The notes beneath the pieces were generated by a model, which ran no database searches, was not told the origin of the DNA, and was given only the letters and a program-made list of their open reading frames with translations. The translations under genes and the position numbers were made by a program. Source: a virus. Taken from it: 41,088 nucleotides of DNA. Positions 1 through 41,088 of the stretch are shown in pieces; within the stretch, counting starts at the first letter, position 1; every line of letters begins with the position of its first letter. The DNA lies in the IMG/VR virus record IMGVR_UViG_3300042923_001761, positions 1 to 41,088 of that record. One strand, 5' to 3'.

Positions 1-306
1 TCACCACGGCGGGACGCGGCCGCGGCGCACGTCGTCCGCCGCGAGCCATGCCACGAGGATCCGTCGACGCCGCTCGTGCGGCGCGAGCTCGACGCGCGCG
101 AGCCGCGAGGTCCAGCCCACGCACACCGTCTCGAGGTACTCCACGCCGTCGCGCTCCCAGACGATGCGGGCCGTGACGCGGACCCACCCGTCACGCTGGA
201 CGCGACGCGGCGGGACGTCGTGCTCGTTGAGGATCCGCTGCCAGTCGCTCACGTCGTAGGACGCGCGCTGGTACCGCCACGGGTCCGGGCCGTCGTGCGT
301 CGCCAT
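1..306 (-). CDS. Hypothetical protein (101 aa) under a LexA box; candidate SOS-induced phage gene
   Basis: I do not recognise the family. The protein is 101 aa, soluble and basic at the C-terminus (cluster HERRRR near residue 80), with several Trp residues and no membrane segment. I chose the ATG at 306 because the longer reading frame upstream would run through the LexA box and the promoter region. A perfect LexA box (328-343) lies 21 bp upstream of the start, so host LexA probably represses it and DNA damage should induce it. It is the only gene in the window with such a site. In temperate phages whose repressor lacks a self-cleavage domain, a LexA-controlled gene often encodes an antirepressor (the coliphage 186 Tum principle). 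That role here is inference from position and regulation only. Confidence 0.72.
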   Translation of the reverse strand: MATHDGPDPWRYQRASYDVSDWQRILNEHDVPPRRVQRDGWVRVTARIVWERDGVEYLETVCVGWTSRLARVELAPHERRRRILVAWLAADDVRRGRVPPW

Positions 307-327
307 GCCGTCCAGTCTCGCACTCGT

Positions 328-343
328 TCGAACGGGTGTTCGA
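328..343. promoter_or_regulatory. LexA (SOS) box, perfect match to the mycobacterial consensus
   Basis: The sequence is TCGAACGGGTGTTCGA, a perfect dyad TCGAAC-N4-GTTCGA, which is the known mycobacterial/actinobacterial LexA operator. On the minus strand a GATTAT-like -10 element sits directly beside it, upstream of the gene starting at 306, so bound LexA would block that promoter. I noticed no second copy in the window. It lies 16 bp from the phage operator at 360-379, so host and phage repressors could both act on this short divergent region. Confidence 0.85.
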
Positions 344-359
344 TAATCCCCCCCTTCTC

Positions 360-402
360 GCCTTGTCAATTGACAAGGCAAGCGGTAGACTCGTCTTGTC
401 AA
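360..402 (+). promoter_or_regulatory. Left early promoter with 20-bp palindromic operator and extra half-site
   Basis: A 20-bp perfect palindrome, GCCTTGTCAATTGACAAGGC, spans 360-379, and a further CTTGTCAA half-site lies at 395-402. A plausible promoter has TTGTCA at 364-369, a 16-bp spacer and TAGACT at 386-391, so the palindrome covers the -35 box and the second half-site covers the start of transcription. The same CTTGTCA element recurs three times in the repressor intergenic region near 37325-37425. This fits a phage-repressor operator that silences the 420-1213 operon in the lysogen. The motif repetition is seen directly; the bound protein is inferred. Confidence 0.68.
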
Positions 403-419
403 CGAGAGAGGAGGTGGAG

Positions 420-629
420 ATGATGGATAAGGACCTCAAGAAGATCCTCGCGGCGATCACGGAGGCCGGTTACACGGTCGTGATCAACAAGAAGGGTCAC
501 GCCGAGGTCTACACCCGCGACGGCGAGAAGGTCACGACCTTCTCGGGCACTCCGAGCGACAAGCGCAGCGTGCTCAACGCGCTCGCCCCGCTCAAGCGCC
601 GCGGGTTCCGCTGGCCGCCCAGGCGGTAG
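420..629 (+). CDS. HicA-like small protein (mRNA-interferase fold, no antitoxin seen)
   Basis: This 69-aa basic protein resembles the HicA family (double-stranded RNA-binding-like fold of mRNA interferases): a helix (DLKKILAAITEAGYT), then strands around INKKGHAEVY, a conserved-type His in KKGHAEVYT, and a C-terminal helix ending LKRRGFRWPP. HicA proteins usually read KGSH at the catalytic site; here it is KKGH. Two ATGs stand side by side: the one at 420 is 5 nt and the one at 423 is 8 nt from a strong AGGAGG (409-414), so 423 may be the real start. No HicB-like gene is adjacent; the next gene encodes an HTH protein that could play a regulatory role. Expression should be controlled by the palindromic operator just upstream. 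Family assignment is moderate; toxin activity is not established. Confidence 0.7.
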   Translation: MMDKDLKKILAAITEAGYTVVINKKGHAEVYTRDGEKVTTFSGTPSDKRSVLNALAPLKRRGFRWPPRR

Positions 630-709: not shown

Positions 710-1213
710 ATGACCGAGTACAACGCCCGCATCGAGTGGGCCACCCGCACCGGCGACGACGACCTGGTCGACGCGCTCGTCGACTACCACCCCGCCGTCT
801 CGCGCAGCGAGCGCGGCTGGGTCGAGGCCACGGTCACCCTGCCCGCCGAGACCCTGCGCCAGGCCGCGACGACCGCGCTCGCGATCGCCGAGGCCGCGAG
901 CGCCGCGGTGCTCGACGGCGCCGCGGTGCTCGTGCTCGAGGTGCTGCCGACCCCCGAGTTCGACGAGCGCAACGGGCTCGTCCCGATGCCCGAGCTCGTG
1001 TCGACGACCGAGGCCGCCGAGAAGCTCGGCGTGAGCCGCCAGGCCGTGCTTCAGCGCCTCGAGTCCGGGTCGCTGCCCGGCACGAAGGTCGGCAAGACCT
1101 GGGTCGTGCAGGCGCGCGCGCTGACCCGTCACAACCTCACCGCCGACGACGCGGCACGCATCGTCGCGGCGAAGGCGGCCGCGCGCAAGGACGTGCCGCC
1201 GCGCAGCGCCTGA
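710..1213 (+). CDS. Helix-turn-helix (HTH_17/excisionase-like) DNA-binding protein
   Basis: A 167-aa protein with two parts. Residues 1-92 hold a predicted alpha/beta segment with an Ala-rich helix (residues 45-70). Residues 95-140 form a MerR/excisionase-type helix-turn-helix: STTEAAEKLGVSRQAVLQRL followed by the wing LPGTKVGKTWVVQARAL, typical of HTH_17. I chose the ATG at 710 because AGGAGAGAG precedes it at good distance. It is the second gene of the short plus-strand left operon, separated from the HicA-like gene by a large hairpin. Excisionase-type HTH proteins act as recombination directionality factors or as small regulators; repression in the lysogen by the upstream operator would fit either role. 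Not proven. Confidence 0.82.
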   Translation: MTEYNARIEWATRTGDDDLVDALVDYHPAVSRSERGWVEATVTLPAETLRQAATTALAIAEAASAAVLDGAAVLVLEVLPTPEFDERNGLVPMPELVSTTEAAEKLGVSRQAVLQRLESGSLPGTKVGKTWVVQARALTRHNLTADDAARIVAAKAAARKDVPPRSA

Positions 1214-36957: not shown

Positions 36958-37305
36958 TCACGCGGTGGCCGCGAGCGTCGCGGCGTGGCGGCGCGTGGCG
37001 GAATGCGTTCCGCTTTCCATGGCGGGCATGGGTGTCGACTCGCGGAGCTCGAAGAGGTCCTCCCAGTTCTCGACGCCGAGACGGGCCGCGAGCGCCAGGG
37101 CGAGGTCCTCGGAGATGTCGGCGAGGGTTCCGTTCTCGATGGCCCAAATGGTCGTCTGGGTGCGCCGGACGAGGAAGGCCAGCTCGCGCTGCGTGTAGTG
37201 CTTCATCTTCCTCTTGCGCCTGAACTCGGCCGGGTCCTTGACGTGCATCCAGACCTCCTTCCGGAGACGGGGCGGGCGGCGGCGGGCGCCGGTTCGTGCA
37301 GCCAT
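36958..37305 (-). CDS. Xre-family regulator, Cro-like position
   Basis: A helix-turn-helix protein (HTH_3/Xre) at the head of the early operon and divergent from the candidate repressor, the position of Cro in lambdoid phages. The HTH reads FRRKRKMKHYTQRELAFLVR then RTQTTIWAIENGTLADISED, followed by LALALAARLGVENWEDLFEL. Two starts each have a good ribosome site: ATG 37305 (GGAGG, 6 nt) gives 115 aa with a basic extension, and ATG 37248 (AAGGAGG, 5 nt) gives 96 aa. Its promoter (TTGACA at 37366-37361, TAGCGT at 37344-37339) overlaps two operator elements, so the repressor should shut it off in the lysogen. Confidence 0.87.
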   Translation of the reverse strand: MAARTGARRRPPRLRKEVWMHVKDPAEFRRKRKMKHYTQRELAFLVRRTQTTIWAIENGTLADISEDLALALAARLGVENWEDLFELRESTPMPAMESGTHSATRRHAATLAATA

Positions 37306-37324: not shown

Positions 37325-37425
37325 CGCTGACAAGTGGAACGCTATCCGGTACGCACTAGTTGTCAAGCCGACAACGGGGTTTTTCACCCTCTGAGGTGGC
37401 ACGATGTGCTAGCCACTTGTCAGCG
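37325..37425. promoter_or_regulatory. Repressor intergenic region: three operator elements and divergent promoters
   Basis: Contains a 13-bp perfect inverted repeat CGCTGACAAGTGG (37325-37337) / CCACTTGTCAGCG (37413-37425), 75 bp apart. Midway lies a third dyad, GTTGTC-N5-GACAAC (37359-37375). All share the TTGTC half-site, and the outer pair the CTTGTCA element of the left-end palindrome at 360-379. The minus-strand promoter TTGACA-N16-TAGCGT for the Xre gene lies between the outer elements; a plus-strand promoter may use TTGTCA at 37417-37422. The arrangement suits cooperative binding or looping by the phage repressor. Confidence 0.75.
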
Positions 37426-37479: not shown

Positions 37480-38067
37480 GTGAACGCACCTACGGGTCTC
37501 CGCGAGCTGCTTGACCAGGCACTGGTCCAGCGCGACGTCCGCTCTGGGCGACGCCTCGCGGAGATCGCTCACGACGCCGGCTACCCGGTCTCGCACGCGA
37601 CGATCAACCAGATCCGCAGCGGGTCCTACGCCTCGCGACCCTCGGACGACACCGTCCGGGCGATCGCGTGGCTCGCCGGCGTCGCCGAGGAGGTCGCGTT
37701 CACGGCGGCGGAGCTCCCGGTACCCGGGCCCCCGTTCGCGGACGAGCTGCCTCCTGGCGTCGACACGCTGTCGCCGCGGAAGCGGAAGGCCGTCCTGGAC
37801 CTGCTGCGGGTGCTGATCGAGGACGAGGAGCGTGATGGCGATGACCGAGACGCCGCCCCCATCAAGCGGGCCGCGGGGAGCGCGGCCGTCAGCGAGCAAG
37901 ACACCCCGGAGGCCGAGGCATCGGACGACGAGTCGTCCGATGGTCCTCGCAAGCACTGGACCCCCGTGACCGAAGCGGACATCCGAGCAGGCGCCGCGCT
38001 TCCCCGGGCAGAGGGGCACGGACGTAAGAAACGGACAACCGGCAGAACGAAGCCACGGCACACGTGA
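37480..38067 (+). CDS. Candidate immunity repressor (195 aa, no S24 peptidase domain)
   Basis: A 195-aa DNA-binding protein. Residues 6-75 contain a Cro/cI-like helical domain: GLRELLDQALVQRDVRSGRR, LAEIAHDAGYPVSHATINQI then RSGSYASRPSDDTVRAIAWL. The rest is a short helix (SPRKRKAVLDLLRVLIEDEE) and a disordered acidic then basic tail (HGRKKRTTGRTKPRHT). There is no S24/LexA-like cleavage domain, so RecA-driven self-cleavage is unlikely. It diverges from the early operon over a cluster of operators and precedes the integrase region, which supports the immunity-repressor call. GTG 37480 follows GAGGGGAG by about 10 nt. Confidence 0.78.
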   Translation: MNAPTGLRELLDQALVQRDVRSGRRLAEIAHDAGYPVSHATINQIRSGSYASRPSDDTVRAIAWLAGVAEEVAFTAAELPVPGPPFADELPPGVDTLSPRKRKAVLDLLRVLIEDEERDGDDRDAAPIKRAAGSAAVSEQDTPEAEASDDESSDGPRKHWTPVTEADIRAGAALPRAEGHGRKKRTTGRTKPRHT

Positions 38068-38241: not shown

Positions 38242-39117
38242 GTGACCAGCAGGAACGCACTGCCCGCAGGAGTGCCGGATCTCGGCGTGGACGACAAGCC
38301 GGGCTGGGAGACGGTGACCGCGCTGATCACGGTCAAGGCGTACCCCGTGATCGGGCGCAAGACGGGCGAGTCGGTGTGCGTCGCCGGCGTGAGGCTCGAC
38401 CGTCCTGAGCGCGAGTTCGTGCGTCTGTTCCCGGTCCCGTTCCGCGAGCTCGCCACCGAGAACCAGTTCAAGAAGTACGCGTTCGTCCAGGTGCGTGCCC
38501 AGAAGGGGATGACGTCTGATCGGCGCCCCGAGAGCCTGCGCCCCGACCTGTCGTCGCTCCGCGTAGGGGAAGTCGTCTCCACAGCGCGCAGATGGCATGA
38601 CCGGTGGGATCTGCTCGACCCCCTCGCTGGAGCGACGACGGCCTGCAGGCTCGCCGCCGCAGCCAAGGTGTCCGGGCAGGATGCGCCCTCCCTGGGGCTC
38701 GTCAAGCCCCGCGAGATCCTCGACGTCACGGTTGCGGACAACCCCGACTACAAGAAGTCGACGGGTCTCGGCGACATGCCGGAGGCCGACCTCTTCGGGA
38801 ACGTCCTGACGCCGCTCGAGGCCACGCCGTTCATCGCGAAGTACCGGTACTACTGCGAGGACTGCACCGGCAACCCCCATCACCAGTCGATCATCGACTG
38901 GGAGGCCGGTCAGCTCGGCCGGCGCCTCCTGCGCGAACACCGCACCGCCGAGCAGGCGCGCGCAGCGATCCGCACACGGTTCCTCGACGAGATGGCGTCT
39001 CCGACCAAGGACACGCACTTCTACCTCGGGAACCAGCACCAGTACCCCGGGAGCTTCATGGTCCTCGGCGTGTTCTGGCCCCCAGCAGGCAGCCGACCGC
39101 TGCCCGGCCTGTTCTAG
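38242..39117 (+). CDS. Unknown Cys/His protein of a DUF488-linked accessory module (291 aa)
   Basis: I assign no family. A 291-aa soluble protein. The N-terminal half has strands VTALITVKAYPVIGRKTGES, VCVAGVRLDRPEREFVRLFP and VPFRELATENQFKKYAFVQV. The C-terminal half has RYYCEDCTGNPHHQSIIDWE (C205, C208, H213, H214, D219, E221) and FYLGNQHQYPGSFMVLGVFW near the end. The Cys/His/Asp/Glu cluster could be a metal site. GTG 38242 has a GGAG-rich leader. Its stop codon TAG overlaps the DUF488 gene's stop in the palindrome CTAG, so the two genes are tightly convergent. The location between repressor and integrase is where prophages carry defence or conversion genes. Confidence 0.82.
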   Translation: MTSRNALPAGVPDLGVDDKPGWETVTALITVKAYPVIGRKTGESVCVAGVRLDRPEREFVRLFPVPFRELATENQFKKYAFVQVRAQKGMTSDRRPESLRPDLSSLRVGEVVSTARRWHDRWDLLDPLAGATTACRLAAAAKVSGQDAPSLGLVKPREILDVTVADNPDYKKSTGLGDMPEADLFGNVLTPLEATPFIAKYRYYCEDCTGNPHHQSIIDWEAGQLGRRLLREHRTAEQARAAIRTRFLDEMASPTKDTHFYLGNQHQYPGSFMVLGVFWPPAGSRPLPGLF

Positions 39118-39578
39118 GCGGGCACGAGCTCCCGCTCGTCGCGCGGCGCCCTTGCGCGCAGCGCGTCCAGGATGAGCGAGCGGTGGCAGCACCGCTCCGC
39201 CGCCTCGAAGCACAGAAGGAGAACCGTGCCCCGAGCCTGTAGCGCCTCGATCACATCGAGCGCCTCCCGCGCCTCCGGAGTCGAGAGCACCTCGTCCGCG
39301 AACCGCTCGCGAGCCTCCCGGCCCTCGGTCGTCGACGTCTCTGCGAAGCCGGCGCGGTTGTCCTTCGGGTTTCCCAGCGCGCGCAGGTGCACGTACTCGA
39401 CCCCCGCGGCCGCGAGCGCCGAGGAGAGTGCTGTCTTCGAGAGACCGCGCTTGCGCGAGATGGGGTTCAGCCGGACGTCGACGACGGCGACGACGCCCCA
39501 GCGGCGAGCGTCGGTGATGAGGTCGTCCACAGATCGACCCTCGTAGCCCCAGCCCATCACACCGTGTCGTACCGTCAT
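39114..39578 (-). CDS. DUF488 family protein
   Basis: A 154-aa DUF488 protein. Diagnostic motifs: VVDVRLNPISRKRGLSK (about 32-48), EYVHLRALGNPKDNR (61-75) and LLLCFEAAERCCHRSLILDA (120-139) with the family's C...CHR. DUF488 members are small soluble proteins of unsettled function; the conserved Arg, Cys and His residues suggest binding of a nucleotide or nucleic acid, which is inference. It faces the 291-aa gene (convergent, stops overlapping) and diverges from the integrase over a 58-bp gap. The start ATG 39578 lacks a strong ribosome site, so it may be leaderless or poorly translated. Confidence 0.88.
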   Translation of the reverse strand: MTVRHGVMGWGYEGRSVDDLITDARRWGVVAVVDVRLNPISRKRGLSKTALSSALAAAGVEYVHLRALGNPKDNRAGFAETSTTEGREARERFADEVLSTPEAREALDVIEALQARGTVLLLCFEAAERCCHRSLILDALRARAPRDERELVPA

Positions 39579-39636: not shown

Positions 39637-41088
39637 ATGAACAGCAGACAGCCCCACGGCAACGCGTTGCGTGCGCCCCGCGCCGTGCTGTACCTGCGGC
39701 AGTCGACCTACCGCGAGGAGTCGATCAGCCTCGAACTGCAGGAGACCGCCGGCCGCGACTACTGCGAGCGCCAGGGGTACGACGTCGTCGCCGTCGAGCA
39801 GGATCCGGGGATCTCCGGACGCACCTGGAACCGGCCCGCCGTGCAGCGCGTGCTCCACATGGTCGAGGCCGGGAACGCCGACGTGATCGTGCTGTGGAAG
39901 TGGTCGCGCCTCTCGCGCTCGCGCCGGGACTGGGCGATCGCCGCGGACAAGGTCGACGTCGCCGGCGGACGGATCGAGTCGGCCACCGAACCCATCGACG
40001 TCGCGACGAGCGCGGGCCGGTTCGCGCGGGGCGTCATGACCGAGCTCGCCGCGTTCGAGTCCGAGCGCATCGGCGACGGCTGGCGCGAGGCCCATGCCCG
40101 CCGCGTCGCCGCCGGCCTCCCCGCGACCGGCAAGCCCCGCTGGGGGTACGCCTACGACCGCGAGGCGAAGATCCACCGCCCCGACCCCACGACCGGGCCC
40201 GTGCTCGCCGACCTGTACCGCCGGTACCTCGCCGGCGAGTCCGTCTACGCGCTCGTGCGATGGCTCAACACCGAGGGCTACCGCACCTCGGCCGGGTACG
40301 GCCCGAACGGCGGGGGAGGGCTCTGGACCGACCGCTCGCTCCGCCGCGTCATGGACTCCGGGTTCGCGGCTGGACTCATCATCGTCGACGGCGAGCAGCG
40401 CCCCGGCGCGCACGAACCCCTCATCACCGCGGACACCTGGGACGCCTACCGCCTCGCGCGCGGCAACCGACGCGTCCAGCGCGGGAGCGAACGCTCGCAG
40501 TACCTCCTCTCCGGCCTCATCCGCTGCACGTGCGGCAGCCCGATGAACGCCGGCCAGTTCGGGCGCGGCCGCGAGCCCAAGTACCGGTGCCGCGACGCCC
40601 ACAACAAGGGCACCCACGACGGCGGCTACATCACCGCCCGGTACACCGAGGACGAGGTCCTCGCCTGGGTGCGCGACCTCGCCGCCGGCGTCGACCAGGC
40701 CGCGAGCGCCGGGCTCGACGAGCTCGCCGCTCGGCGTGCGCGGCGCGACCCGCTCGGCGACATCGTCCGGCAGCGCCAGGCCCTCGAGGCACGGCTCGTG
40801 CGGCTCACCCGCCAGCACCTCGAGGACGTCATCCCCGAGGGCCCGTACATCGAGCTCCGCGACGAGCTCACCGAGCAGATCGACGCGCTCGCCGCGCGCG
40901 AGCTCGAGGCCAGCGTCGCCGCGACGCGCGCGCCCGCGCCCGAGATCGCGCGGCAGCTCGTCGCGGACTGGGACGTGCTCGGCGTCGAGCACCGACGAGC
41001 GATGCTGCGGCAGATGATCGCGTGCGTCGTCGTCACGCCGGGTCGGCCGCGGGGGAGCGTGCATGTCGTACCTCTGTGGGAGGGGTGA
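39637..41088 (+). CDS. int: Large serine integrase
   Basis: A complete 483-aa large serine recombinase. Resolvase domain: RAVLYLRQSTYREESISLEL with catalytic Ser23, QDPGISGRTWNRPAVQRVL, VIVLWKWSRLSRSRRDW and GVMTELAAFESERIGD. Recombinase domain: GKPRWGYAYDREAKI and YLAGESVYALVRWLNTEGY. Zinc-ribbon domain: LIRCTCGSPMNAG and KYRCRDAHNKG. A coiled-coil C-terminal part (RQRQALEARLVRLTRQHLED) follows. It inserts phage DNA between attP and attB without host factors; excision needs a directionality factor not identified for certain here. ATG 39637 has GGAG 9 nt upstream. attP should flank this gene, probably just beyond the window. Confidence 0.95.
   Translation: MNSRQPHGNALRAPRAVLYLRQSTYREESISLELQETAGRDYCERQGYDVVAVEQDPGISGRTWNRPAVQRVLHMVEAGNADVIVLWKWSRLSRSRRDWAIAADKVDVAGGRIESATEPIDVATSAGRFARGVMTELAAFESERIGDGWREAHARRVAAGLPATGKPRWGYAYDREAKIHRPDPTTGPVLADLYRRYLAGESVYALVRWLNTEGYRTSAGYGPNGGGGLWTDRSLRRVMDSGFAAGLIIVDGEQRPGAHEPLITADTWDAYRLARGNRRVQRGSERSQYLLSGLIRCTCGSPMNAGQFGRGREPKYRCRDAHNKGTHDGGYITARYTEDEVLAWVRDLAAGVDQAASAGLDELAARRARRDPLGDIVRQRQALEARLVRLTRQHLEDVIPEGPYIELRDELTEQIDALAARELEASVAATRAPAPEIARQLVADWDVLGVEHRRAMLRQMIACVVVTPGRPRGSVHVVPLWEG

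What the first reader, a model, noticed from the sequence alone, without database searches (positions are those of the whole stretch)
1..343. LexA-controlled left-end gene as a possible antirepressor switch
A perfect LexA box (TCGAAC-N4-GTTCGA) lies 21 bp before the start of a 101-aa unknown gene. The candidate repressor at 37480 shows no S24 peptidase domain, so RecA-driven self-cleavage is not expected. A host-LexA-controlled antirepressor would solve the induction problem, as known for Tum in coliphage 186. The LexA box and missing domain are seen; the antirepressor role is inferred.
Basis: partly seen in the sequence, partly recalled or inferred. Interest (0 to 1): 0.7.

Follow-up and report, generated by a model that had tools for sequence, protein, structure and literature searches.

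The report
LexA-controlled small gene at prophage end
A prophage carries, under the host's DNA-damage switch, a copy of an undescribed small-protein family that actinobacteria keep among their own damage-response genes, so it is more likely damage-response cargo than the phage's own induction trigger.

Summary
In detail: a perfect LexA box (328-343) lies 21 bp before a 101-aa minus-strand gene (1-306), the only such box in the record, and the repressor at 37480 has no S24 domain. The antirepressor reading is not supported, though not excluded. The 101-aa protein belongs to a family absent from Pfam, NCBIfam and PHROGs. I counted 40 members: 8 in virus records, 32 in actinobacterial genomes. 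In the order holding Phytoactinopolyspora, 25 of 28 carry a LexA-like box just upstream, mostly as lone chromosomal genes; four sit head to head with a DnaE2-like polymerase gene across the box. AlphaFold gives a Tudor/SH3-like barrel. Two sister phages share the repressor (81% and 71%) but lack the gene. Relatives instead place an ImmA-type protease near this repressor, behind a LexA box (3 of 19) or a PafBC-type damage promoter (9 of 19); the window has no such protease. The divergent HicA-like/Xis operon probably answers to the phage repressor: CTTGTCA occurs five times in 41 kb, all at that operon's promoter or in the immunity region. Best reading: SOS-induced damage-response cargo beside the excision operon. 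Against it: only 2 of 12 members outside that order keep the box.

The parts
328..343 (.). perfect LexA box TCGAACGGGTGTTCGA
1..306 (-). 101-aa gene (P0001); N-terminal flexible part, then predicted Tudor/SH3-like barrel (residues ~38-100)
361..378 (.). palindrome CCTTGTCAATTGACAAGG, probable phage-repressor operator between the two divergent genes
   Evidence: inference from half-sites shared with the immunity region
395..401 (+). third CTTGTCA half-site near the expected start of the rightward transcript
363..391 (+). sigma-70-type promoter TTGTCA-17-TAGACT of the rightward operon
420..629 (+). 69-aa HicA-like protein (phrog_2089; PADLOC HicA-like)
710..1213 (+). 167-aa protein with HTH_17 / excisionase-like C-terminal domain
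36958..37305 (-). HTH_3 protein, Cro-like by position
   Evidence: Cro is annotated in the same place in BritBrat and Xavia
37328..37334 (-). CTTGTCA half-site in the immunity region
37360..37374 (.). TTGTCAAGCCGACAA operator-like palindrome
37416..37422 (+). CTTGTCA half-site in the immunity region
37480..38067 (+). repressor (phrog_12831), no S24; 51% identical over 113 aa to the BritBrat immunity repressor
38242..39117 (+). 291-aa gene, PADLOC PDC-M19B candidate defence protein
39114..39578 (-). DUF488 gene, PADLOC PDC-M19A candidate defence protein
39637..41088 (+). large serine integrase

Best explanation
The 101-aa gene is damage-response cargo: a phage-carried copy of an undescribed actinobacterial family of small Tudor/SH3-like proteins whose chromosomal members stand behind LexA boxes. 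Host LexA sits on 328-343 and blocks leftward transcription; RecA-driven LexA cleavage opens it, and the protein acts as a small adaptor in the DNA-damage response (binding nucleic acid or a replication/repair protein), not on the phage repressor. Next to it, the rightward HicA-like/Xis operon is held by the phage repressor and opens at induction. Shown: box, gene, family, boxes across the family in one order, model fold. Inferred: LexA binding here, the protein's activity, repressor binding at 361-401.
For: Box perfect and unique. 27 of 40 family members have a LexA-like box (at most 2 mismatches, at most 1 of them in the core) in the 120 bp of start positions scanned, against 246 of 8000 random windows in the same loci; 25 of 28 in one order. 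In most members with a box it ends 10-11 bp before the chosen start. lexA promoters of 8 of 8 tested genomes with family members carry such boxes. Neighbours look chromosomal, read by eye. Head to head with a PHP/DNA_pol3_alpha gene in four loci of three genomes (L063 by Pfam; L062, L065, L079 by eye); another member lies near a DinB-type polymerase gene (L059). 18 of 22 genomes of that order have the family. Fold. Sister phages share the repressor but not the gene. CTTGTCA occurs five times, all in the two control regions.
Against: Outside that order only 2 of 12 members (window, L045) keep a box, so LexA control is not a general trait of phage-borne copies. In the window the box-to-start distance is 21 bp, not 10-11. 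No member has a tested function. Fold matches are middling (best Z 6.8, no PDB match at E<=0.001) and a fold shows no function. The four DnaE2-like neighbours come from three related genomes, one holding two copies.
Confidence: 0.55

Rival explanations
1. Antirepressor (Tum/Gifsy-like): LexA cleavage releases the 101-aa protein, which binds and disables the repressor at 37480, so the phage is induced without repressor cleavage.
For: No S24 and no M78/ImmA in the record; the LexA box is unique; the repressor family often has a damage-wired protease near it, missing here; Gifsy antirepressor genes lie outside the immunity region under LexA (PMC3121763, passages). Sister G005 also lacks ImmA and has a perfect LexA box before a different 99-aa gene at the same end.
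Against: Family mostly chromosomal without a repressor partner; sisters G005 and G006 keep the repressor but lack the gene and G006 has no box within 1 mismatch; G007 has both a family member and an ImmA gene. If the phage repressor binds 361-378 it may also cover the leftward -35 (TTGACA at 369-364, read by eye; one search lists no minus-strand promoter), so the gene could not act first.
Confidence: 0.17
2. SOS-induced growth or division inhibitor that slows the host while damage lasts.
For: Small lone LexA-controlled genes of this role are known (recalled, no call).
Against: Predicted compact barrel with no clear membrane segment by eye, unlike known small membrane inhibitors (recalled).
Confidence: 0.12
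3. The box mainly tunes the divergent HicA-like/Xis operon, tying excision to SOS.
For: Same intergenic region, 307-419; in L003 a one-mismatch box also sits beside the 69-aa/Xis cassette before an unrelated gene.
Against: The box lies upstream of the rightward -35 (363-391), a poor place for repression; no box lies near the cassettes of L004 and L005.
Confidence: 0.08

Closest known systems
Gifsy prophage antirepressors GfoA/GftA and Tum of phage 186 (PMC3121763, passages)
   Same: small LexA-controlled phage gene outside the immunity region; repressor without the autocleavage domain
   Different: this family is mostly chromosomal and not kept by sister phages with the same repressor; repressor binding untested
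ImmR/ImmA-type repressor-protease induction modules; here the immunity repressor + metallo-protease pairs of BritBrat, Xavia, Dori, Tortellini, Mask
   Same: same repressor family (51% over 113 aa to BritBrat)
   Different: the window has no M78 protease; PDC-M19A/B genes occupy the place
Streptomyces venezuelae LexA regulon, which includes prophage-cluster and hypothetical genes (PMC9380542, passages)
   Same: the box fits its consensus tCGAAC-N4-GNNCGa
   Different: no experiment here; this family is not named in the passages seen

Membership tests
LexA-controlled antirepressor (Gifsy/Tum type) | LexA box at its promoter | tested here: met
LexA-controlled antirepressor (Gifsy/Tum type) | cognate repressor without S24 | tested here: met
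LexA-controlled antirepressor (Gifsy/Tum type) | gene kept together with its repressor in close relatives (expected, not strictly defining) | tested here: not met
   records may be trimmed
LexA-controlled antirepressor (Gifsy/Tum type) | protein binds and inactivates the repressor | not testable with these tools
   no co-folding or binding assay
LexA-controlled antirepressor (Gifsy/Tum type) | sequence relation to GfoA, GftA or Tum | not tested
   no direct comparison made; only no Pfam/PHROG match
ImmR/ImmA induction module | M78 (HExxH) protease in the phage | tested here: not met
   no match in the window
ImmR/ImmA induction module | repressor of the kind paired with the protease in relatives | tested here: met
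actinobacterial LexA-boxed small-protein family described here | matches the family profile | tested here: met
actinobacterial LexA-boxed small-protein family described here | LexA-like box just upstream | tested here: met
   distance 21 bp instead of the usual 10-11
actinobacterial LexA-boxed small-protein family described here | Tudor/SH3-like barrel | tested here: inconclusive
   model pLDDT 80.5, pTM 0.67; best Z 6.8; only the window protein was modelled

The most novel reading that the evidence does not exclude
In this repressor family the host damage signal normally enters through an ImmA protease driven by LexA or PafBC. This phage lost the protease and rerouted the signal through a LexA-controlled Tudor-like protein, recruited from a host damage-response family, that disables the repressor: a new class of antirepressor.
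Probability: 0.13. Interest if true: 0.75.

Novelty: new member of a known kind. Interest (0 to 1): 0.5.

Why it matters
It names an undescribed damage-regulon family in actinobacteria, some copies head to head with a translesion-type polymerase gene, and shows that phages carry it. It also suggests that actinobacterial temperate phages wire the repressor-cleaving protease to whichever damage regulator is at hand, LexA or PafBC, which would explain how these S24-less repressors are lifted and can be tested in laboratory phages of Mycobacterium smegmatis.

Tried and rejected
Host gene caught at the record edge: homologs lie near ends of other virus records, several beside lysis genes, in Brevibacterium phage AGM1 and in a Phytoactinopolyspora prophage-like region, so it can be a phage gene; but the true attL is not seen, so a host flank is not fully excluded.

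The divergent gene of L003 as a distant family member: hhalign probability 0.1 on its percent scale. The G005 99-aa gene as a second LexA-boxed family: 2 of 393 genomes with marginal, frame-broken matches; dropped. Perfect boxes over relatives are not enriched as such: CGAACN4GTTCG in 3 of 21 records against 2 of 21 for the reversed control. Phage-collection and IMG/VR hits of the window protein alone: none. Solved structures by sequence: best E 0.25. A PafBC-type motif in the window: none.

Rows dropped before the family count: L050 (same locus as L002), L080 (same as L073), L067 and L068 (chance hits in a large enzyme), the second row of L083; L066 gave no row. The loci L096-L125 were not added to the count, being mostly the same places. 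LexA secondary hits L094 and L095 had no box.

Full report
What is there. The window is an IMG/VR virus record of 41,088 bases. It runs from the stop of a minus-strand gene to the stop of a large serine integrase gene. Lytic genes run leftward on the minus strand. A Cro-like HTH gene (36958-37305) and the repressor (37480-38067) face away from each other. At the left end, a 101-aa gene (1-306, minus) faces away from a HicA-like gene (420-629) and an excisionase-like HTH_17 gene (710-1213). The perfect LexA box 328-343 lies 21 bp before the 101-aa start; none arose in 400 Markov copies.

The family. The window protein has no match in Pfam, PHROGs, NCBIfam or the phage collection. One genome hit, in Phytoactinopolyspora alkaliphila, 42% identical over residues 23-95, already had a two-mismatch box before its start. 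Profiles then found six IMG/VR members, one in G007 and matches in 23 of 393 actinobacterial genomes. Scanning the members of the 36-row alignment gave no NCBIfam match and only weak, scattered Pfam and PHROG matches. After dropping duplicates and chance hits, 40 members remain; 27 have a LexA-like box upstream against 246 of 8000 random windows of the same loci. By source: 2 of 8 virus records, 25 of 28 in the order that holds Phytoactinopolyspora (NCBI order Jiangellales), 0 of 4 other genomes. In that order 18 of 22 genomes have the family, up to four copies each. The lexA genes of 8 of 8 tested genomes have boxes of the same kind upstream. Most members stand alone between ordinary chromosomal genes, as read by eye; a few, such as L075, lie beside phage lysis-like genes. 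In four loci of three genomes (L062, L063, L065, L079) the member and a DnaE-like polymerase gene point away from each other across the box; L063's neighbour has PHP and DNA_pol3_alpha domains, the other three were read by eye. One member in G199 (L122) has a PafBC-type motif abutting its LexA box.

Fold. AlphaFold on an eight-row alignment gave pLDDT 80.5, pTM 0.67, with five strands in residues 38-95. Second-look alignment ranks Tudor and retroviral-integrase SH3-like barrels first, best Z 6.8 over 60 residues at 2.3 A; Foldseek alone had no PDB match at E<=0.001 and a best viral match to an Arthrobacter phage protein at E=0.002. Such barrels bind nucleic acids or peptides (established knowledge), but Z at this level may mean only a common arrangement.

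Why not simply an antirepressor. The two nearest phages, G005 and G006, share the integrase (97%, 90%) and the repressor (81%, 71%), yet lack the family, S24 and M78. G005 has a perfect LexA box before an unrelated 99-aa gene at the same end; G006 has none within one mismatch. So the left end looks like a slot whose LexA-controlled content changes while the repressor stays. The records may be trimmed, so absence is not proof.

The divergent operon. CTTGTCA occurs five times in 41 kb, three at 362-401 and two in the immunity region, where TTGTCAAGCCGACAA also lies. Shuffles gave five or more in 3 of 100; that all five fall in two control regions is the stronger point. The rightward promoter TTGTCA-17-TAGACT overlaps the palindrome. 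I infer that the phage repressor holds the Xis operon. The HicA-like/Xis pair recurs in L003-L006, and palindromes with other cores sit in the same place in L003 and L005, read by eye.

How the repressor is probably lifted in relatives. The window repressor is 51% identical over 113 residues to the annotated immunity repressor of Gordonia phage BritBrat. In BritBrat, Xavia, Dori, Tortellini and Mask a gene annotated metallo-protease, peptidase or IrrE-like follows it, directly or after one or two genes; in Sahara the corresponding gene is annotated HTH but holds HExxH. Of 19 such protease loci, 9 have the published PafBC motif form TGTC[G/A]G-N10-TA-N3-T (from passages of PMC8151990) upstream, 3 a LexA-like box, 11 at least one; random windows gave 64 and 93 of 5700. 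In G016 both abut. Several of these phages are related, so the 19 are not independent. In the window, PADLOC's PDC-M19B and PDC-M19A candidates occupy the place. Searches of the held papers for PafBC with prophage or phage protease and for LexA with ImmA or metallo-protease listed no paper whose title or abstract start describes this wiring; I read listings only there. That the protease cleaves this repressor is inferred from the known ImmA/ImmR pairs (established knowledge), not shown.

Judgement. The most probable role is damage-response cargo next to the excision operon. The antirepressor remains possible because no other damage input was found in the record.

Noticed in passing
L011, L016, L019, L029, L130-L134 upstream of the HExxH protease genes: PafBC-type damage promoters (9 of 19) and LexA boxes (3 of 19) before ImmA-type protease genes near this repressor or integrase family; both abut in L029 (5297-5333).
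   Followed up: partly
window 38242-39578: Two overlapping genes match the PADLOC candidate defence pair PDC-M19B/PDC-M19A, between repressor and integrase where relatives have the protease.
   Followed up: no
L049 5868-5883: A LexA box identical to the window's, spacer included, lies 14 bp before a 50-aa ORF that runs into the 3' end of an HTH repressor-like gene on the other strand.
   Followed up: no
L039 2225-2559 (G005): Sister prophage carries a perfect LexA box before a cysteine-rich 99-aa gene at the same prophage end.
   Followed up: partly
L060: A chromosomal family member lies near a 69-aa HicA-like / Xis-like cassette, as in the window.
   Followed up: no
L048 3793-3814, L045 about 150 bp before the domain: PafBC-type motifs upstream of two phage-borne family members.
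   Followed up: no
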